The translations under genes and the position numbers were made by a program. From positions 124,001 through 188,000 of the forward strand of contig NZ_CP013419.1 in NCBI RefSeq assembly GCF_001524445.2: a DNA stretch of 64,000 nucleotides. The letters run 5' to 3'. Numbering within the stretch: the stretch's first letter is position 1; each line of letters begins with the position of its first letter. Source of the DNA: Burkholderia savannae. Its GTDB lineage: Bacteria > Pseudomonadota > Gammaproteobacteria > Burkholderiales > Burkholderiaceae. Shown here piece by piece: positions 3,446-42,280 of this stretch. A model generated the notes under the pieces. The model was not told the origin of the DNA and ran no database searches. It saw only the letters and a list, made by a program, of their open reading frames with translations.

Positions 3446-3755
3446 CATTCGCGCGCCCCGTCGCAAGCTCGCGTTCATTCTGCCCATATCGGGCAAGAAG
3501 TTGAAGTCCATTATCGTTGGCATCCGCTGTATGGTCGCCGCGTCAAGGTTCGAGACGTAGAGAATCGCAGCGGCGGCCGCGTGGTGCATGTCGACGCCGG
3601 CCCTGGCGTAGTCAAGGTGGTGGCAGCTTGGATGCTCGATCGGGCCGTGTGTTCAGTCATGGAGCTCGGCGAGCCGAAGGTTACCGTGGCGGTGCTATGC
3701 GTACTGCATCGGCTGCTTGTTGATCGGCGCTTGCGAGCAAACTCGCCGGACGGTG
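3446..3755 (+). pseudogene. Partial copy of the DUF5372-like small gene of a recombinase element
   Basis: The plus-strand translation runs SQARVHSAHIGQEVEVHYRW, HPLYGRRVKVRDVENRSGG, VVKVVAAWMLDRAVCSVMEL and VTVAVLCVLHRLLVDRRL. It is nearly identical to the minus-strand gene at 32226-32765, which partners a large serine recombinase. Here the recombinase is gone: homology stops at about 3755, where IS21-type terminal sequence begins. HPLYGR is reminiscent of the DUF5372 family seen next to such recombinases. Confidence 0.7.
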
Positions 3756-5924: not shown

Positions 5925-6609
5925 GTACCCGAAGGAGTTCCTCGGAGACTACGCGGGCACGCTGATGACGGACGGCTGGCCTGCGTGGCGGACGGTCAAA
6001 TCGGCCACGCACCTCGGATGCCTTGCGCATGGACGCCGGATGTTCACGGATGCGCTCAAGGGGCAGAAGAACAAACCGAGCCCCCGCATCACGAAGGCGC
6101 TCGAATTCTTCCAGGCGCTGTACCAGGTCGAGACGCTCGCCAAACAGACGTTGCCCGAAGGCGAGACGCTGGCCGATTACCGGTACCGCTTGCGCCAACA
6201 GCACAGCGTGCCGTTGCTAAACGCCTTCAAGAGTTGGCTCGACGAGCTCGCGCCGAAGGTTCTGCCCAAGAGCCTGCTAGGCGAGGCGATCGGCTACTGT
6301 CTCCGGCAATGGCCTTACCTGAGTCGCTATGTGGACGATGGCCGGTTTGCAATAGACAACAACGTCATCGAACGCGACATCAGGCCGTTTGCCACGGCGA
6401 GAAAGTCGTGGCTCTTCAGCGATACGGTCGACGGCGCGAAAGCGAGCGCGATGGTCTACAGCCTGATGCTCACGTGTCGAGCCTGTGGCGTCGATCCCCA
6501 TGCCTATCTGCTGCACGTGCTGACCGAATTGCCGCAGCGCGCACCGGATGCCGATATTGGCGACCTGCTACCGTTCAACTTCGCTCGACAGCAAGCCGTT
6601 ACCGGGTAA
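5925..6609 (+). pseudogene. IS66 transposase TnpC, C-terminal fragment
   Basis: Encodes the last part of the DDE transposase, with FLGDYAGTLMTDGWPAW, GCLAHGRRMF and the DNNVIERDIRPFATARKSWLF signature, ending VTG-stop inside a 13-base palindrome. It matches the C-terminus of the intact TnpC at 11331-12953. The N-terminal half with the zinc-finger-like cysteines and first catalytic residue is missing. Confidence 0.85.
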
Positions 6610-27863: not shown

Positions 27864-27909
27864 TGTTTGCAGATGCCAAGATGACGACCGCGCTGCTCGA
27901 CCGTCTTAC
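27864..27909 (+). pseudogene. istB: istB fragment ahead of the IS66 insertion
   Basis: The frame reads VFADAKMTTALLDRL, the C-terminal IstB motif, and continues after the IS66 element at 32988 as THHCHSVETGNDSYRF. The IS66 target duplication CGTCTTAC (27902-27909) is in this gene. On the left it abuts the IS110 end. Confidence 0.7.
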
Positions 27910-27997
27910 GTAAGCCCCCGGTGAAGTCATCTTGTCCAGTCGCTTCGTGACCGCGAGGATCGTGTCCACCAGATTTTTAAGTGGACACGTGTACACC

Positions 27998-28390
27998 ATG
28001 GAAGGCAACGAGGTTGAAGGGCTGGAACTGATAGAGCCGACGCGACGGCGTCGGCATAGCCGCGAGTTTAAGGAGAAGGTCGTGCGCGCGGCGATGCAGC
28101 CGAACGTATCCATCGCGGCGGTCGCGTTGCATTACCGGCTGAACGCCAACCTTGTGCGTCGCTGGGTCGTTGCACGGCAGAAGCCGGACGTGATCGAACC
28201 GGCGGCCGTAGAAGCACTCGCAGCACCGCAGGCGGCATTCGTGCCGCTCCAGTTGGAAGCGTCGTCCGCGTCGGCGGGGCTGTCGGAGATCCGGATCGAG
28301 GTTCGTCGGGGCGCCGCCATAGTCACGGTGCATTGGCCGGCGTCGGCGGCCGTCGAGTGCGCGGCGTGGCTGCGGGACTGGCTGAGATGA
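27998..28390 (+). CDS. IS66-family accessory protein TnpA
   Basis: A 130-residue TnpA starting MEGNEVEGLELIEPTRRRRH, with the helix-turn-helix REFKEKVVRAAMQPNVSIAA, then VALHYRLNANLVRRWV. The C-terminal domain has IRIEVRRGAAIVTVHWPASA. The start at 27998 was chosen because an upstream ATG at 27932 reads terminal DNA. It overlaps tnpB by four bases (ATGA). Confidence 0.9.
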   Translation: MEGNEVEGLELIEPTRRRRHSREFKEKVVRAAMQPNVSIAAVALHYRLNANLVRRWVVARQKPDVIEPAAVEALAAPQAAFVPLQLEASSASAGLSEIRIEVRRGAAIVTVHWPASAAVECAAWLRDWLR

Positions 28391-28722
28391 TCCGCATCGA
28401 TGCGATCTGGCTCGCGACGGAGCCGGTCGACATGCGCTCCGGTGCGGATACGTTGCTGGCCCGGGTGGTGAAGGTGTTCGGCGCAGTGCGGCCGCATCAC
28501 GCGTATCTGTTTGCCAATCGGCATTCCACACGGATGAAGGTGCTGGTCTACGATGGGCTGGGCATCTGGCTGGCCGCGCGTCGGCTGAACAAGGGCCGCT
28601 TCATCTGGAGCGATGGTGAACAGTCGGTTTCCTTGCCGTTGAATGCCGAGCAACTGCGCGCGCTGGTCACGGGTCTGCCGTGGCGGACGCTAACGCCCGA
28701 TCACGCGATTACCGTGATATGA
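28387..28722 (+). CDS. IS66-family accessory protein TnpB
   Basis: A 111-residue TnpB: MIRIDAIWLATEPVDMRSGA, then HHAYLFANRHSTRMKVLVYD, then GLGIWLAARRLNKGRFIW, the full family signature. It is coupled to tnpA by ATGA and lies 63 bases ahead of tnpC. Confidence 0.92.
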   Translation: MIRIDAIWLATEPVDMRSGADTLLARVVKVFGAVRPHHAYLFANRHSTRMKVLVYDGLGIWLAARRLNKGRFIWSDGEQSVSLPLNAEQLRALVTGLPWRTLTPDHAITVI

Positions 28723-28785
28723 GGCGCACCGGGACGTAAACAGTTTCGCTTCCGTGCCGGAGTGGCCTCTGGCAGACTGGCCTGC

Positions 28786-30146
28786 ATGGACTTGCCCACC
28801 GACCTCGACGCCCTGAGCCCGGAACAGTTGCGTGCGTTGGCCGCGCACCTGATCGTGCAGGTCACCGAGCAAGAGCGGGAGGCTGGCGAGCGAGAGCGGG
28901 AGCTGCAGTATCGGCAAACGCGTATCGATCAACTGACGCACGAACTCTCCGTGCTCAAGCGCCTGCAATTCGGCAAGCGCAGCGAGCGGCTCGATGCCGA
29001 ACAGATGAGCCTGCTCGACGAGGCGATCGACGCAGACCTGGCGGCACTGGAAGCCGAACTCGAACAGCTTCAACCGGCCACGACTGCCGCTGAGCCTCGG
29101 CAACAGCCGAAGCGTGTGCCCTTGCCATCGAAACTGCCGCGTACGGACATCCATCACGAACCGGAAGACACCACGTGCCAGTGCGGTTGCCAGCGGGAGC
29201 GCGTGGGCGAAGACATCAGCGAGAAGCTGGACTATGCGCCAGGCGTGTTCACGGTCGAGCGGCATATCCGCGGCAAGTGGGCCTGTCGGCACTGCGGGAC
29301 CCTGATCCAGGCACCGATCCCGCCTCACGTCATCGACAAGGGTATCCCGACCACCGGGCTGTTGGCGCAGGTGCTGGTTGCCAAATACGGCGACCACCTG
29401 CCGCTGTATCGGCAGGAACGCATCTTTGCCCGCGCGGGCCTGGCGGTCCCGCAATCGACGCTCGGCGCGTGGGTCGGCATCTGCGGTGTACGGTTGCAAC
29501 CACTGGTCGATGCGCTTCGCGAAGAGCTCCTGCAGCGCGACGTGCTGCACGCCGACGAGACGCCGGTGCAGATGCTGTCGCCCGGCAAGGGCAAGACGCA
29601 TCGGGCTTACCTGTGGGCGTACAGCACGACGCCATTCGCCGATCTGAAGGCCGTGGTCTACGACTTCGCCGGCAGCCGTGCCGGCGAACATGCCCGAAAG
29701 TTCATGGGAGCGTGGTGCGGCAAGCTCATGTGCGATGACTATAGCGGCTACAAGGCCGGATTCGAACTGGGCATCACGGAAATCGGATGCGTCGCTCACG
29801 CCCGCCGGAAATTCTACGAGCTGCACGTCAACCACAAGAGCCAGATCGCCGAGCAGGCGCTGAAATACTTCGGCGCACTCTACGACGTCGAGCGTGACGT
29901 CGCCGAACTGAAGCCCGATCGAAGACAGGCCATCCGCCAGCAGCGATCCAGACCCGTTGCCGATGCGTTGCACGCCTGGATGGTGACCCAGCGCAAGCTC
30001 GTTGCCGAAGGATCGGCAATCGCAAAGGCGCTCGACTACAGCCTGAAGCGTTGGGAAGCGCTCACGCGCTATCTCGATGACGGGCACGTGCCCATCGACA
30101 ATAACTGGCTGGAGAACCAGATTCGACCATGGGCGATGGGGCGTTC
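28786..30146 (+). pseudogene. IS66-family transposase TnpC, 5' part (split by a recombinase element)
   Basis: Starts MDLPTDLDALSPEQLRALAA, followed by coiled coil, zinc-type cysteines (TTCQCGCQRERVG and WACRHCGTLIQ), VLHADETPVQM and LMCDDYSGYKAG with catalytic D residues, and IDNNWLENQIRPWAMGR with the catalytic E. At 30146 it enters the recombinase element and reads on as junk to 30330. The missing end, NWLFAGSLRAGQRAAAIMSL onward, is at 32743-32935. Joining TC (30145-30146) to G (32743) restores GRSNWLFAGS in frame. Confidence 0.92.
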
Positions 30147-32229
30147 ATTGTGCACCTCCTTCCGAAACCTCGGTAAACATTGGGAGTTGCCCTTCAACGT
30201 CGTTGCGACACGGGCGATGTTTGCGCGTCAGCGCCGCCGTAACAGCTTCACTGCGCAGATCGCTCGCGCGAATCTGCCACGGGGCATCGGGCATTACCTG
30301 CTCGGCAGGCAGAACCTTATCGTTGATTAGACGCCGGATCATATAGTGGGTAACGCCAAGCGCTTTCGCCGCCTCGGACATCGTCAACCAGTCACCATCC
30401 TTCTCTGCCGACTTGTACGCATAGATGTTGCGCACTCGCCGTACGGAGCTGACGCGATGCGCAGTCCAGGTCTTGCCTTGGCCCGTACGTATCCCCATCC
30501 GGTTTAGTGATGCGGCAATATCCTGATCAGACCATCGGGTTGCCATGCTGCGCATGACTGCGAGCGCTTCGTCGGACGTGCTGCATCCGTGCTCGCCGGT
30601 CTTGGGTTTGCGGATCCGCACCTGCGAGTGCTGACCACCTTGCCAGTGAATCGTGAGAATGACTTCACGCGTTGACTCGTTCACGTCTGCGACTATATCG
30701 ACGATCAGCACCCGAACCAGCTGCTGGCGCATGCGCATGGTGACGCCTGGAGCATTCCAGGCGGCATCGAGGTCCTCGGCGAGCTTCGTAAAGTCAGGAG
30801 CAGCGATTGGTGCCGCCGATGTGCGCGTTGTCTCCAGGCGCGCTTGGCAGGCCTGTACACGACGCAACGCTGCCTCCCAATTCTTCTCCAACTGCGCGGC
30901 GATCAGACGGTTATCGGGATCGCAGGCGGCGTAGCGTCGCTCTGCCAGCGTGGCTTCGTACTGAGCCTGCTGCAGTTCAAGTTCGATGATTCGCCGCTGC
31001 TCGCTCAGGGTATCCATAAGCATCTGCTCGGCCTGCAAGGCCGCCTCTATCGCCACTGGCTCCACGACACGCATCAGTTCTCTCGCGATCGCGGCGTCTA
31101 TGCGAGAGCCACCGAAGCTCATGCACTTCGGTGGCAGGTCAAAGCGATAGCATCGGTAGACCGGTCGCGGTGTGCGTCCAGTATAGGCCACCGACAGACG
31201 GCGTCCGCAGCGCGCGCATCCAAGTAGTCCTGCCAGCAGGGCTCGCCCACCACGCCCCGATTTTACGTCGCCTGCCTTGCCATAGGCGTTTGCGGCGAGC
31301 AGCTTCTGATTGCGCTCGAATTCTGCCCAGTCGATGTAGCCTTCGTGGTGCTCTTTGAGCAGAACCTCCCACTCCTCGAACGGCTTGCGGTGCTTGTAGG
31401 TCTTATGTGCACGGCCATCGACGATGGTCGTCTGCTTCCCACTCTTGCCATATGCGTAGGCCCCGGCATAGAACGGATTCCTGAGCACCGAGATCACGTT
31501 ACGGTAACGTATCAGCGTCCAGTCGAAATGCGTCAGGGTCCTGCCATCGGTCGGACGCGGAAAGTGGATTTGTTCGGCCTGTAACGACAGGAAAGCCTGC
31601 CGTGCGCTACCCAGTTCGCGAAAGCGAGTGAAGATCATGCGTATCACTTCCTGCAGCCGTTGGTTGGGATCAAGACCCAGGCCGACATCACGATGCCAGA
31701 GATAGCCAATCGGCACGCTGATGCGCAATTCACCGCGCTGAGCCTTGGAACGCGCGGCATCCAGCATGCGCGTTCGAAGCACGTTGAGCTCGAATTCGCT
31801 AATGCTGCCCTTCATGCCGAGCAGCAGCCGGTCGTTCGGTCGGCAGGGATCGTACACGCCATCAAGGTCGATGACCCGCGCCTCGACGAGACCACACAGT
31901 TCGAGCAGATGGTGCCAGTCGCGCCCGTTACGGGCAAGACGTGATGCATCCAGGCAAAGGACAGCTCCGACTTCACCGGCACAGAGCAATGCCACCAGGC
32001 GCTCAAAGCCGGGCCGGGCCACCGTTCCGCTCGCCGATCGACCCAGATCATCGTCGATGACCTCGATATCGCGAAACCCGCGGCGCTTTGCTTCTCCCAC
32101 GAGTTCGTACTGGCGACGCTGGCTCTCGAGATTCATCTGGACCTGGGCCTGCGTCGACTGACGGACATAAACTACTGCCTTGCGCTGGAGAAGGGGCGCC
32201 GGCAAACGATCAGCGTTCGTCATCGTCAC
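30145..32229 (-). CDS. Large serine recombinase
   Basis: A 694-residue recombinase. The N-terminal resolvase domain has AVVYVRQSTQAQVQMNLESQ with the catalytic Ser and LCLDASRLARNGRDWHHLLE with the catalytic arginines. The Recombinase domain follows (YLWHRDVGLGLDPNQRLQEV, then FYAGAYAYGK). Next are a zinc ribbon (LLGCARCGRRLSVAYTGRTP, then YRCYR) and a coiled coil (QRRIIELELQQAQYEATLAE). A C-terminal extension holds a second helix-turn-helix (MSEAAKALGVTHYMIRRLIN). The stop codon TGA lies exactly on the left junction with IS66 tnpC. Length and motifs suggest it is active. It is probably the integrase/excisionase of the element. Confidence 0.92.
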   Translation of the reverse strand: MTMTNADRLPAPLLQRKAVVYVRQSTQAQVQMNLESQRRQYELVGEAKRRGFRDIEVIDDDLGRSASGTVARPGFERLVALLCAGEVGAVLCLDASRLARNGRDWHHLLELCGLVEARVIDLDGVYDPCRPNDRLLLGMKGSISEFELNVLRTRMLDAARSKAQRGELRISVPIGYLWHRDVGLGLDPNQRLQEVIRMIFTRFRELGSARQAFLSLQAEQIHFPRPTDGRTLTHFDWTLIRYRNVISVLRNPFYAGAYAYGKSGKQTTIVDGRAHKTYKHRKPFEEWEVLLKEHHEGYIDWAEFERNQKLLAANAYGKAGDVKSGRGGRALLAGLLGCARCGRRLSVAYTGRTPRPVYRCYRFDLPPKCMSFGGSRIDAAIARELMRVVEPVAIEAALQAEQMLMDTLSEQRRIIELELQQAQYEATLAERRYAACDPDNRLIAAQLEKNWEAALRRVQACQARLETTRTSAAPIAAPDFTKLAEDLDAAWNAPGVTMRMRQQLVRVLIVDIVADVNESTREVILTIHWQGGQHSQVRIRKPKTGEHGCSTSDEALAVMRSMATRWSDQDIAASLNRMGIRTGQGKTWTAHRVSSVRRVRNIYAYKSAEKDGDWLTMSEAAKALGVTHYMIRRLINDKVLPAEQVMPDAPWQIRASDLRSEAVTAALTRKHRPCRNDVEGQLPMFTEVSEGGAQ

Positions 32230-32742
32230 GCTCCTTCCCGGTGGTTGCGCCGGCGGCTTGGATCAGCAGGCTTGCAAGATGCGTGATTACCTTTGCGCGT
32301 TGCGCCGTGTTCATTCCCTGAAGCTCGACGTTGTCGAACACCATGTTCATCTGGCGCGGCGTCACCGCCGGCGATTGCGGTCGTGCTGGAACACCCCTTG
32401 GCAGCTGGCCCATTGCGTTTCTCCCGGACGATGGTGGAACTGTCCGGCGAGTTTGCTCGCAAGCGCCGATCAACAAGCAGCCGATGCAGGGCGCATAGCA
32501 CCGCCACGGTAACCCTCGGCTCGCCGAGCTCCATGGCGGAACACACTGCGCGATCCAGCATCCACGCTGCCACCACCTTGACTATTCCAGGGCCCGCGTC
32601 GACATGCACCACGCGGCCGCCGCTGCGATTCTCTACGTCTCGAACCTTGACGCGGCGACCATACAGCGGATGCCAACGATAATGGACTTCAACTTCTTGC
32701 CCGATATGGGCAGAATGAATGCGAGCTTGCGACTGGCCGCTC
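30147..32742 (-). mobile_element. Serine-recombinase mobile element inserted in IS66 tnpC
   Basis: About 2.6 kb holding two minus-strand genes: a large serine recombinase and a DUF5372-like gene overlapping it by four bases. The boundaries are defined by the tnpC reading frame on both sides. The flanks GCGT-TC-ATTG and CCGC-TC-GAAC share the dinucleotide TC (30145-30146 and 32741-32742), a plausible crossover core. No inverted repeats and no target duplication are seen, which fits serine-recombinase integration. Confidence 0.8.
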
Positions 32743-32765
32743 GAACTGGCTGTTCGCTGGCTCAC
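32226..32765 (-). CDS. DUF5372-like protein partnered with the recombinase
   Basis: A 179-residue protein of unknown function. The core is GQEVEVHYRWHPLYGRRVKV, then RDVENRSGGRVVHVDAGPGI, then VKVVAAWMLDRAVCSAMELG, and the C-terminus is unstructured. HPLYGR and the beta-rich core resemble the DUF5372 family found beside such recombinases. Its GTG start at 32765 lies in tnpC sequence outside the element, so expression may use a target-supplied start. A closer start inside the element was not found. The stop overlaps the recombinase ATG. A partial copy is at 3446-3755. Confidence 0.75.
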   Translation of the reverse strand: MSQRTASSSGQSQARIHSAHIGQEVEVHYRWHPLYGRRVKVRDVENRSGGRVVHVDAGPGIVKVVAAWMLDRAVCSAMELGEPRVTVAVLCALHRLLVDRRLRANSPDSSTIVREKRNGPAAKGCSSTTAIAGGDAAPDEHGVRQRRASGNEHGATRKGNHASCKPADPSRRRNHREGA

Positions 32766-32935
32766 TGCGCGCAGGACAACGTGCAGCCGCGATCATGAGC
32801 CTGATCCGGTCGGCGCAGCTTAACGGGCATGATCCGTACGCCTACCTGAAAGACGTGCTCACCCGACCGCCCACGCATCGTGCCAACGACATCGCGTCGC
32901 TGCTTCCGCATCGCTGGACGCTCGCCGCGGCTTGA
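32743..32935 (+). pseudogene. IS66 transposase TnpC, 3' part
   Basis: Frame NWLFAGSLRAGQRAAAIMSL, then NGHDPYAYLKDVLTRPPTHR, then LLPHRWTLAAA-stop. It completes the split tnpC of 28786-30146. The IS66 right terminal repeat follows at 32979. Confidence 0.88.
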
Positions 32936-32987
32936 TCAGCGGCACCTCCCGAGCCTCGGTGCCTTTACCGGGTGCTTACCGTCTTAC

Positions 32988-36981: not shown

Positions 36982-38022
36982 TCACTGTAGCCAACTCATC
37001 CCAACGCCTATCGTCTTTCCTTCCGAGCTCAACCCGATCCCTGTCCGGACCTTCAGATTGCTCGAGAGCCATGCTGTGCCTCCAAGCGCCATCGCATGGT
37101 AACCTTTGTAGGAACCCACACCAATGCCGATCGACAACGTCTTGTTCCTGTCGACGTCGGGGATCATCGTCAACGCAGTCGCGGCAGCCACGCCCGCGTA
37201 TGCACTACGTGCGGTAGCATCGATCTGCCGCTGCAATTCGCCGAAGCGGCGTTCCGATTGAACCGTTATTGTCTTTAATGCCGAATTGAGCTGGTTCACA
37301 TTTACCGCATCTGTTCCTTCTGTACCTGGCGCAACATGCACGATCTGGCGTTCGCCGCCGGCTTGTTCGACCGACACCGTGTTGTCTCGCGTCGCCTGCG
37401 AGCCTGCCCCCAGTGCGACTGAGTCGACGCCCGAGGCGGCGGCATCCGCGCCCAGCGCAATCGGCCTTTCGGCTTTCGCGCTCGAGATCCAATCGGGCGC
37501 AACCGCATCTTCCCATTCCCCCTCGAACTCATCGCGTCCGCTGCCGAACAATTCGTTGTCTGATTTCCCGGTCGATTCGGGCGAAATATTGCTCGAATAG
37601 CCCTCAATTTTGCTCAGATAGCCTTTAGTAACGTCTAGATGCTCCTTAATAGAGCTCTGTTTGATCTCGAGTTCACTCTCAACGTCGTTAACGATTTTCG
37701 AATACCACTCAATGATTTTCAAATAATCATCATCTACGAGACTGTCCTTCATTTTCCGTATATTATTCTCAATTTCACCCATAGATATATTATAATTGTC
37801 ATTTTTCGAAATACCGTGCGAAACAGGCATTGCATATGCGAAACCGACCGACGCGCACAAAGTAGCGCACACACTTGCTGATCGAATTCCGCTCCAGCCA
37901 TTTTTCCCACTCACGATATCGACGAACCGGATTTCTGGCCAGGATGCACCAGCCCGATCATGCCGCGCGCGATGCACCGCGAACTGTTTCACCCGCTTCC
38001 GAAACCACCCCGATGCTTCCAT
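36982..38022 (-). CDS. Trimeric autotransporter paralogous to BimA, with an acidic coiled-coil passenger
   Basis: A 346-residue protein. A long N-terminal leader has a hydrophobic core at residues 46-64 (IRSASVCATLCASVGFAYA). The passenger (residues 66-180) is AT-rich, acidic and helical, with ENNIRKMKDSLVDDD, ESELEIKQSSIKEHLD and RDEFEGEWEDAVAPDW. Then come head/neck motifs ALGADAAASGVDSVALGAGS, HVAPGTEGTDAVNVNQLNSA and a YadA-type four-strand anchor ending GVGMSWLQ. The C-terminal 160 residues closely match those of BimA at 43.3-43.8 kb. The passenger does not. It probably displays a short helical trimer at the surface. EWED at residues 169-172 resembles the acidic Arp2/3-binding end of WASP proteins. 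Confidence 0.85.
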   Translation of the reverse strand: MEASGWFRKRVKQFAVHRARHDRAGASWPEIRFVDIVSGKNGWSGIRSASVCATLCASVGFAYAMPVSHGISKNDNYNISMGEIENNIRKMKDSLVDDDYLKIIEWYSKIVNDVESELEIKQSSIKEHLDVTKGYLSKIEGYSSNISPESTGKSDNELFGSGRDEFEGEWEDAVAPDWISSAKAERPIALGADAAASGVDSVALGAGSQATRDNTVSVEQAGGERQIVHVAPGTEGTDAVNVNQLNSALKTITVQSERRFGELQRQIDATARSAYAGVAAATALTMIPDVDRNKTLSIGIGVGSYKGYHAMALGGTAWLSSNLKVRTGIGLSSEGKTIGVGMSWLQ

Positions 38023-40954: not shown

Positions 40955-42280
40955 ATGCACTTATCCCCGTCGTATTCCGATGTAAATACCAAGCAAAACG
41001 CACACAACGTACCGAAAGTCACGTTCTCCGGTTCGTCACCGAAGCTGGATGGACAGGCGCCATCGGCACTCGACCCTCATCCACCTACACGTCAGCCGTC
41101 GGTCATGACGAACAAAGTGGACCCGCGGGGTTTCGTGGCGCCTCCAGACATGCCGACGTGGTCCGGCACCGAAGGTATGCATTTCGACTTCAACGACGGC
41201 TGCCGCGTGCTGCTGCCGGACGGTGACTGGACGGTCCGCCTGTGCGACATACACACTGATACGCCACTGTTCGACACGCAGATCGGCGCAGGCATCGTGA
41301 CGAGCACGAGGAAGCACTTCGTACCGTTCCTGATCGAAATCGACTCGGGCGGCAAGCGCGTGTTCAAGCATCAGCTCGACGCGCACGGCAAGCCCGTGCT
41401 CATTCAGTTCGAAGCGGGCCGGCTCGGCGAAGCGCTCGGCTGGTTCGGCTATGCCGTGAAATTTCAACGGCAACATCGCTGCAAGCTGACGTGCTCGATG
41501 CACGCGTCGCTGATCTCGCTGCTGAAGCCCGGCTATCCGGACATCGAGTTCGTGACGCCCGACCTCGTCAAGCCCGAGTGCTACTACGCGACATACCGAC
41601 TCGGGCGCTTCGTCGGCGACGAAGCGCGCGCGTACCAGCCGAGCGCACCGCAGCTCGTCGGAATGCACCGCAGCGCCGCATACATGCTAGGCGTCGATCC
41701 GCGCGAGGTGCCGCCACGCATCGAGTTGCTCGACGATAGCAGGCCCTTTGCAGGCCGCTATGTCTGCATCGCCGCGCAAAGCGCGCTGCGCTGCGCGCGC
41801 TGGGAGCGGCCTGGCGGCTGGCGGGAATTGCAACGGTTCCTGACGGCGACCGGCTACCGGATCGTCTGCGTCGACTCGCCTTCGCCGGATGTCGTCGACG
41901 AAAGCAGCGCGCTCGCGGATGTCGCGCATTGCCTGCCGCCCGACGCGCCGTGGACCGAGCGCGCGCGCTGGCTGCGCCACGCGGCCTGCCTGATCGGCGT
42001 GCCCGGCGATCTCTCGTGGCTCGCGTGGGCGGTCGGCACGCCAGTCGTGCTGATCAGCGGGTTCACGCATCCGGTCAGCGAGTTCGACACGCCGTACCGC
42101 GTGATCAACTTCCATGCATGCAATAGCTGCTGGAACGACGCGAGCGCGCGCTTCGACGATGCCGATGCGTCGTCGTGCCCGCGTCATGCGGGGACGTTGC
42201 GGCAGTTCGAATGTGCGCGGCTCGTGAGCGTCGAGCAGATCAAGCATGCGATTCGATCGATTCCTGGTATCGCCGGCTGA
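40955..42280 (+). CDS. bimC: BimC, TibC-like iron-binding heptosyltransferase-family protein
   Basis: A 441-residue protein of the TibC/autotransporter heptosyltransferase family. GEALGWFGYAVKFQRQHRCK near residue 155 and DPREVPPRIELLDDSRPFAG lead into a glycosyltransferase-9-like half (CLIGVPGDLSWLAWAVGTPV, then VLISGFTHPVSEFDTPYRVI). At the end, Cys389, Cys392, Cys408 and Cys420 (HACNSCW...SSCPRH...FECARL) have the 3-16-12 spacing of the iron-binding cysteines in TibC. In B. thailandensis the homologue works with BimA and is needed for actin-based motility. The start is uncertain: ATG 41105 is an alternative and neither has a clear ribosome binding site. Confidence 0.88.
   Translation: MHLSPSYSDVNTKQNAHNVPKVTFSGSSPKLDGQAPSALDPHPPTRQPSVMTNKVDPRGFVAPPDMPTWSGTEGMHFDFNDGCRVLLPDGDWTVRLCDIHTDTPLFDTQIGAGIVTSTRKHFVPFLIEIDSGGKRVFKHQLDAHGKPVLIQFEAGRLGEALGWFGYAVKFQRQHRCKLTCSMHASLISLLKPGYPDIEFVTPDLVKPECYYATYRLGRFVGDEARAYQPSAPQLVGMHRSAAYMLGVDPREVPPRIELLDDSRPFAGRYVCIAAQSALRCARWERPGGWRELQRFLTATGYRIVCVDSPSPDVVDESSALADVAHCLPPDAPWTERARWLRHAACLIGVPGDLSWLAWAVGTPVVLISGFTHPVSEFDTPYRVINFHACNSCWNDASARFDDADASSCPRHAGTLRQFECARLVSVEQIKHAIRSIPGIAG

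What the first reader, a model, noticed from the sequence alone, without database searches (positions are those of the whole stretch)
30145..32742. Serine-recombinase element docked inside IS66 tnpC; excision predicted to restore the gene exactly
The tnpC frame is split at GRS/NWLF. The flanks share the dinucleotide TC (30145-30146, 32741-32742). Joining them gives ...GGG CGT TCG AAC TGG..., i.e. GRSNWLFAGS, the conserved IS66 sequence, with no base gained or lost. The recombinase stop codon falls on the junction itself and the partner gene borrows its start from tnpC. This looks like an element that parasitises a conserved site in transposases, so it can ride with IS66 and still allow repair by excision.
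Basis: partly seen in the sequence, partly recalled or inferred. Interest (0 to 1): 0.7.

Follow-up and report, generated by a model that had tools for sequence, protein, structure and literature searches.

The report
Serine-recombinase parasite of IS66 transposase genes
A small mobile DNA element inserts itself at one conserved spot inside the transposase genes of other mobile elements, and one of its own genes appears to become whole only when the element pops out as a circle.

Summary
Of 90 copies (window plus 89 relatives), 69 lie between complementary tnpC halves (60 antisense, 9 sense) and 16 more have tnpC on at least one side. The 2-bp core agrees at both ends in 71 of 84 (two anchors hand-corrected). 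Two Rhizobium plasmids with the empty site lack exactly the element plus one GC. Three copies identical over 2,579 bp sit in three divergent tnpC genes of one genome.

Beyond the finding: orfA lacks a start at its own end in nearly all copies. An ATG lies at the other end, in frame across the modelled circle junction in 80 of 82 copies and, with ends set by eye, in 11 of 11 distant rows. Relatives 33-46% identical sit in other mobile-element genes (tnpB, istA, istB, IS3 orfB and others), which suggests an IS-parasitising superfamily. Function is inferred; no circle was seen.

The parts
27902..27909 (.). 8-bp target-site duplication, left of the IS66 (CGTCTTAC)
27910..27929 (+). left terminal inverted repeat of the host IS66
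   Evidence: 17 of 20 with the right end
27932..28390 (+). IS66 tnpA-like orf (HTH_Tnp_1)
28333..28722 (+). IS66 tnpB
   Evidence: TnpB_IS66 E 6.5e-27
28762..30134 (+). N-terminal part of tnpC up to and including the left core
30133..30134 (.). left core dinucleotide GC
30135..32728 (-). the element between the cores (2,594 bp; 2,596 with one core)
   Evidence: ends placed by comparison of 84 copies
30145..30155 (.). end repeat at the recombinase 3' end (TCATTGTGCAC), 10 nt inside the core; contains recombinase stop and the proposed orfA start
30146..30148 (-). ATG start codon proposed for orfA in the circle; Shine-Dalgarno-like GGAGGTG at 30153-30159
   Evidence: same layout in the 82 relatives (the anchor used there itself contains ATG)
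30145..32229 (-). large serine recombinase, 694 aa, with Zn ribbon (just above cut-off) and a C-terminal HTH_17/excisionase-like stretch (below cut-offs)
32210..32413 (-). orfB, small orf of about 67 aa overlapping the recombinase start
   Evidence: 'hypothetical protein' at this place in several plasmid records
32226..32717 (-). orfA body; conserved domain about the first 85 codons (to about 32463)
32708..32718 (.). end repeat at the orfA end (TCATTCTGCCC on the minus strand), 10 nt inside the core
32729..32730 (.). right core dinucleotide GC
32729..32936 (+). C-terminal part of tnpC
32960..32979 (-). right terminal inverted repeat of the host IS66
32980..32987 (.). 8-bp target-site duplication, right of the IS66 (CGTCTTAC)
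3453..3754 (-). remnant of a second copy: the orfA end of the element abutting the C-part of another IS66 tnpC (GRANGLF, by reading)

Best explanation
A compact autonomous site-specific element (orfA, orfB, large serine recombinase; about 2.6 kb). The recombinase recombines a circular form (attP, made of the two element ends) with a conserved DNA site in IS66 tnpC, by a 2-bp staggered exchange at the first two bases of the codon, usually Ala, of RPxA-xGRKN, just after the NNxxER motif (its role as catalytic-Glu motif is recalled). Because the core is usually GC (palindromic), it can enter in either orientation. Leaving by the reverse reaction would give back an uninterrupted tnpC. orfA spans attP: its start lies at one end and its body at the other, so insertion separates them and circularisation makes the gene whole, giving a closed operon orfA-orfB-recombinase-orfA. 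Shown by sequence: ends, core, target, empty alleles, recent movement between divergent tnpC genes, recurring junction geometry. Inferred: that the recombinase does the reaction, that the circle exists, that orfA is made in the circle and helps (re)integration or establishment. Related clades use the same design on other mobile-element genes, so the general strategy is to live in transposase genes: abundant, mobile and dispensable to the cell.
For: Target: 69 of 90 copies between complementary tnpC halves; tnpC N-part alignments stop at residues 455-457 of the window protein in nearly all loci with a match. Core: identical at both ends in 71 of 84, incl. 9 non-GC (two anchors hand-corrected). 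Empty alleles: joined L087 flanks match two Rhizobium plasmids as uninterrupted tnpC at 99.8% and 99.3% over 402 nt; difference = element plus one GC. Movement: 3 copies identical over 2,579 bp in R. johnstonii 3841 (L087, L088, L089) with no blastn match in the flanks but 49 bp between two of them; L067/L068 identical over 2,585 bp, flanks without match. One genome with what looks like the same tnpC occupied and empty (L172, L160). orfA: joined ends give an open frame in 80 of 82; 11 of 11 distant rows (10 different elements) fit start + 11 nt + core + 11 nt + orfA in frame, with equal cores TT, GG, GT, TC, CT or GA. Body under selection: substitutions by codon position 5944:6075:14200. Target clusters with recombinase clade (13 changes against a shuffled mean of 27.5).
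Against: No circle junction was found: 0 of 399 genomes of the order, 0 of 12 carrier genomes, 0 in viral contigs (exact patterns only). 13 of 84 core pairs differ (one, L108, because its ends were misplaced). L054 and L104 are not in tnpC; L058 and L106 have C-parts on both sides. The host gene of L089 is a decayed remnant known by motif and reading only (the same copy, L131, had no TnpC hit). The ATG count is partly built in, since the anchor used to set that end contains ATG; starts and ends were set by eye, and for L108 one of two possible core placements was taken. 43 of 83 copies have some in-frame start upstream in place, and 21 of 85 have a possible start within the first 15 codons of the body. 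Codons 1-5 show no third-position bias. Absence of stops at the junction is uninformative: other frames lack them too. The fixed spacing may be held by the att site rather than by the frame. No experiment.
Confidence: 0.82

Rival explanations
1. As above for the element, but orfA is expressed in place from start codons and promoters borrowed from the interrupted tnpC, or from internal starts; the ATG at the other end is only the tail of a recombinase binding site.
For: 43 of 83 copies have an in-frame ATG/GTG/TTG upstream in place and 21 of 85 one within the first 15 codons; the ATG lies within the conserved end repeat, so it could be kept for binding.
Against: 37 of 83 have no start before a stop in place; a start at the fixed place fits in 11 of 11 distant rows with different end sequences, three of them with GTG; the frame fits in 80 of 82.
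Confidence: 0.2
2. A passenger gene of IS66 moved only by IS66, not an element with its own mobility.
For: IS66-plus-element units with 8-bp duplications.
Against: Identical elements in divergent tnpC genes, sharp ends inside tnpC, empty alleles.
Confidence: 0.03
3. A programmed, host-beneficial insertion, excised to switch IS66 on (like nitrogen-fixation elements of heterocysts).
For: Best NCBIfam match is XisF (E 1.1e-26); the empty allele is an uninterrupted gene.
Against: XisF score 93.9 against cut-off 375; scattered occurrence (4 of 65 genomes of the genus at E up to 1e-150, the window's own included), many different tnpC hosts; the gene is itself a parasite gene.
Confidence: 0.03
4. Remnant of a phage or integrative conjugative element that kept only its integrase.
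For: Large serine recombinases are typical phage and ICE integrases (established knowledge).
Against: Recurrent 2.4-2.6 kb size in the 84 copies with both ends; one relative found in the viral collection, 43% identical.
Confidence: 0.04

Closest known systems
Large serine recombinase (phiC31/Bxb1/TndX type) integrative elements
   Same: Resolvase, Recombinase and Zn-ribbon domains; 2-bp core; sharp junctions inside coding genes
   Different: Very small, no cargo seen; target is a transposase gene; C-terminal HTH_17/excisionase-like stretch; a gene spanning attP. The large survey PMC10083194 (12 of 22 passages read) names competence genes, a magnesium chelatase and a prolyl isomerase as targets; its main text does not contain IS66, and the passages I saw name no transposase gene as target
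Integration-dependent immunity of mycobacteriophage BPs and relatives
   Same: A gene is cut by integration because the attachment site lies in it. [quoted passage not shown] that the site lies in the repressor gene is recalled
   Different: There the 3' end of a phage repressor gene is removed (recalled); here the start codon is separated and the gene would be whole only in the circle
phiRv1 of Mycobacterium in REP13E12 repeats (recalled, no call)
   Same: Serine integrase that targets a repetitive mobile-like element
   Different: A prophage-like element in one host group and one repeat family
fdxN element and XisF of heterocystous cyanobacteria
   Same: Serine recombinase in an element interrupting a gene
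   Different: Score far below the family cut-off; no developmental role known here
DUF5372 (PF17342)
   Same: Occupies the orfA position in relatives L111 and L112 (E 6.3e-23, 7.7e-26)
   Different: The window's and five close-family orfA proteins had no match to it

Membership tests
Large serine recombinases | N-terminal Resolvase domain followed by Recombinase domain and Zn ribbon | tested here: met
   PF00239 87.8 bits, PF07508 70.9 bits, PF13408 25.7 bits (cut-off 25.3)
Large serine recombinases | Short identical core at both junctions, one copy in the empty site | tested here: met
   71 of 84 cores equal (two anchors hand-corrected); empty site has one copy
Large serine recombinases | Catalysed strand exchange | not testable with these tools
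   needs an assay
TndX-like multi-targeting clade | DUF4368 domain, reported in 63% of that clade (PMC10083194, passage) | tested here: not met
   no DUF4368 among Pfam matches up to E 0.01
XisF (fdxN element recombinase) | NF041201 score above 375 | tested here: not met
   93.9 bits
SCCmec Ccr recombinases | NF047344/343/347 above cut-off | tested here: not met
   48.5, 47.5, 25.5 bits against 700, 900, 900
DUF5372 | PF17342 match of orfA | tested here: not met
   none for the window or five close relatives; met in L111 and L112
IS66 (the host element) | tnpA, tnpB, tnpC, terminal repeats, 8-bp duplication | tested here: met
IS-parasitising superfamily proposed here | start codon + 11 nt + core + 11 nt + orfA in frame across joined ends | tested here: inconclusive
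   not joined for the window itself; relatives: 80 of 82; 11 of 11 rows, ends set by eye

The most novel reading that the evidence does not exclude
A previously undescribed superfamily of minimal serine-recombinase elements that live in the genes of other mobile elements. Each clade is specialised on one conserved coding motif: IS66 tnpC just after its catalytic Glu, IS66 tnpB at three places, the catalytic-Glu region of IS21 istA, IS3 orfB and probably an ISNCY transposase, the Walker A motif of istB, perhaps IS4/IS5-type transposases and the reverse transcriptase of group II introns. A gene that is whole only in the circular form serves as a switch telling the element that it is out.
Probability: 0.58. 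Interest if true: 0.9.

Novelty: new variant of a known kind. Interest (0 to 1): 0.8.

Why it matters
It would be a widespread parasite of transposons that carries its own address for a conserved part of transposase genes. That bears on how IS elements are kept in check, offers a set of small recombinases with readable, clade-specific target motifs, and gives a clean model of a gene activated by DNA circularisation. It may also explain many 'broken' IS66 and IS21 genes and orphan 'recombinase family protein' plus 'hypothetical protein' pairs in rhizobial and burkholderial replicons.

Tried and rejected
Stop-free junction as evidence for orfA: rejected, since other frames are stop-free too (0, 0 and 1 of 64 distinct junctions with a stop). 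attB as a strong palindrome: CGnCC-type matches at 8, 9 and 11 nt from the core, no more than column make-up predicts (62 sites). orfA fold: AlphaFold pLDDT 86, Foldseek best E 0.057; the list mixes ribosomal, photosystem and Tudor/SH3-like parts, too weak to name a function. Circle or tandem junction in assemblies: none. Literature: ten searches; titles and abstract starts of the listings showed no description of such elements, and only PMC10083194 was opened (passages). The library holds open-licence PMC papers only, so subscription papers and ISfinder entries are not excluded. 'DUF5372' gave no paper.

Not identified: flanks of L114, L123, L140, L147/L151, L033, L042, and of fragments such as L145, L146, L149, L150, L154, L156. 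L054 and L104 flanks are not tnpC; by eye L104 sits in an unrelated gene.
Full report
WHAT IS THERE. The window carries an IS66 element (27910-32979) with imperfect terminal repeats (17 of 20) and an exact 8-bp duplication CGTCTTAC on both sides. Its tnpC is interrupted by a segment with a 694-aa large serine recombinase on the opposite strand, a small orf (orfB) and an upstream frame (orfA). The recombinase has the Resolvase and Recombinase domains, a Zn ribbon just above cut-off and, at the C-terminus, an HTH_17/excisionase-like stretch below cut-off; that region aligns in all eight proteins.

WHERE IT IS INSERTED. With the window that is 90. By fuzzy motif, 69 have the complementary N- and C-parts of tnpC on the two sides, 60 with the recombinase antisense and 9 sense. 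The other 21: seven lack one end by contig limits or an unfound end motif and show the N-part on the other (L035, L049, L061, L062, L066, L081, L107); L046 shows the C-part next to a contig end; L043, L089 and L105 have decayed or frameshifted tnpC by reading; L058 and L106 have C-parts on both sides; L031, L034 and L053 have tnpC on one side and another sequence on the other (in L031 another recombinase, in L053 a tnpA-like stretch by eye); L033 and L042 have an unidentified flank and a contig end; L054 and L104 have no tnpC; L108 is in istB. So 85 of 90 have tnpC on at least one side. Near-copies exist: the nine sense rows are five insertions (L100-L103 one, L079/L080 one), and L082/L083, L094/L099, L020/L021 are pairs, so independent events are fewer than these counts.

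THE CORE. Aligning ends shows one design: 10 nt, then TCATTSTGCCCAT..., and at the other end ...GCACAATGA then 10 nt, with a 2-bp core outside. In 84 loci with both ends the cores agree in 69; two anchors (L052, L059) were set wrongly and read GC/GC by hand, giving 71: 62 GC and 9 others (GG, CA, AC twice, GT twice, CC three times). Thirteen differ; one of them is L108, whose ends are set differently. The core is the first two bases of the codon that is usually Ala in RPxA-xGRKN. Uninterrupted relatives in the same genus agree: right after the core codon they read TGRSNWLF (L158, L160, L161, L176) or TGRANWLF (L175), as the window's right flank does; 8 of the 20 fetched loci were read, of which 5 are uninterrupted, 2 occupied and 1 short.

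IT MOVES BY ITSELF. L087 (R. johnstonii 3841, pRL12) has allelic empty sites in two other strains (402-nt joined query at 99.8% and 99.3%); occupied and empty differ by the element and one GC, and the neighbourhood is collinear. A second joined query (L057) found only 84-88% full-length uninterrupted relatives. The same R. johnstonii genome has three copies identical over 2,579 bp whose flanks share no blastn match except 49 bp between two of them; L067 and L068 likewise over 2,585 bp. The third R. johnstonii copy (L089 = L131) lies in a decayed tnpC seen by motif and reading only; it had no TnpC hit. In one same-genus genome (G052) what looks like the same tnpC occurs occupied (L172) and empty (L160). 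In the window's own genome two remnants of the element's orfA end abut two other tnpC genes (L002, L003, by reading). Within the genus, 4 of 65 genomes, the window's own included, have the recombinase at E up to 1e-150.

A GENE ACROSS THE CIRCLE JUNCTION. The orfA frame is conserved from the very end of the element (30 rows; domain alignment of 55) and shows third-position bias overall (5944:6075:14200 over 839 pairs), though not in the first five codons read there. It lacks a start at that end: 7 of 83 copies have a possible start within the 10-nt end, 43 have one somewhere upstream in place, 37 have none before a stop, 3 reach a contig edge; 21 of 85 have a possible start within the first 15 codons of the body. 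At the other end the 82 scored copies (window left out) have an ATG overlapping or following the recombinase stop, preceded by a purine-rich stretch by reading. Since the anchor used to set that end contains ATG, this count is partly built in. Joined as a circle the frame is open in 80 of 82 with both cores tried (failures L031 with one core, L090 by a frameshift). In 11 rows of distant relatives (10 different elements, chosen because both ends could be set by eye) the same rule holds: start, 11 nt, core, 11 nt, orfA, with equal cores; for L108 one of two possible core placements was taken, and three starts are GTG. Control that failed to discriminate: stops are rare in all junction frames. 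In L111 the record's DUF5372 gene begins at the element's edge. AlphaFold gives a small beta-barrel with helices (pLDDT 86); PDB matches are weak (best E 0.057).

RELATIVES LIVE IN OTHER MOBILE-ELEMENT GENES. Sixteen more distant plasmid loci (L111-L126, picked from the listings), L012-L014 from the own genome, L108, and loci of four carrier genomes were examined with IS proteins. Matches on both sides: tnpB near residue 50 (L115, L116, L139) and 63-75 (L113, L152); istA near 255 (L014, L111, L124, L141, L144); istB near 109 (L117, L119; L108 by eye) and near 220 (L148); tnpC near 490 (L118, L122); IS3 orfB (L013, by eye). One side only: tnpB (L126, L143, L155), istA (L012), an ISNCY-like transposase (L112, 53% to an annotated one; L134 by resemblance), IS3-type transposase (L120, L121, rve matches), DDE_Tnp_1 (L125), reverse transcriptase (L133, RVT_1 E 1.3e-10; L137 looks like a copy). 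Carrier genomes also gave further close copies split in tnpC at 476-479 of a 550-aa reference (L127, L128, L129, L130, L135). Unidentified: L114, L123, L140, L147/L151 and fragments not classed. A 45-row tree shows targets clustering by clade, 13 changes against a shuffled mean of 27.5, with istA not one group and some long branches. Several sites lie at catalytic motifs (after NNxxER in tnpC; DKAKVE in istA; SPQSNGMAE in IS3; Walker A in istB); the motif roles are recalled knowledge.

WHAT IT IS LIKE. A large-serine-recombinase element by domains and att logic, not a member of the XisF, Ccr or TndX-type groups (DUF4368 absent). Of PMC10083194 I read passages only. Precedent for a gene cut by its own attachment site: mycobacteriophage BPs (PMC4557955, abstract start in a search listing; detail recalled).

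VERDICT. Observation partly right, interpretation partly supported and extended. The mechanism (recombinase action, circle, role of orfA) is inferred.

Noticed in passing
window 3453-3754 and locus L002: Two partial copies of the element's orfA end, each abutting the C-part of a different IS66 tnpC, in the same replicon.
   Followed up: yes
L012, L013, L014 (own genome): Three copies of a 3.3-kb sister element (recombinase about 35-36% identical) in istA of IS21 (both halves at L014) and IS3 orfB (L013, by eye).
   Followed up: partly
L133 793-1302: A relative whose 3' flank matches reverse transcriptase (RVT_1), by resemblance of the group II intron type.
   Followed up: partly
L058, L106: tnpC C-parts on both sides of the element, as if two inverted copies had recombined.
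   Followed up: no
L027, L031, L034, L037, L039, L045, L054, L058, L064, L072, L073, L084: Twelve close copies with different cores at the two ends, possibly mismatched integrations or later recombination.
   Followed up: no
window 36982-38022: Trimeric autotransporter C-part resembling BimA, below the curated cut-off.
   Followed up: no
window 40955-42280: Autotransporter heptosyltransferase family protein (TIGR04414).
   Followed up: no
L020 and L021: 5,073-bp identical IS66-plus-element block in two replicons, with an 8-bp duplication only at L021 (by reading).
   Followed up: partly
L104: Copy with equal GC cores in what looks by eye like a gene unrelated to mobile elements; an off-target integration.
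   Followed up: partly
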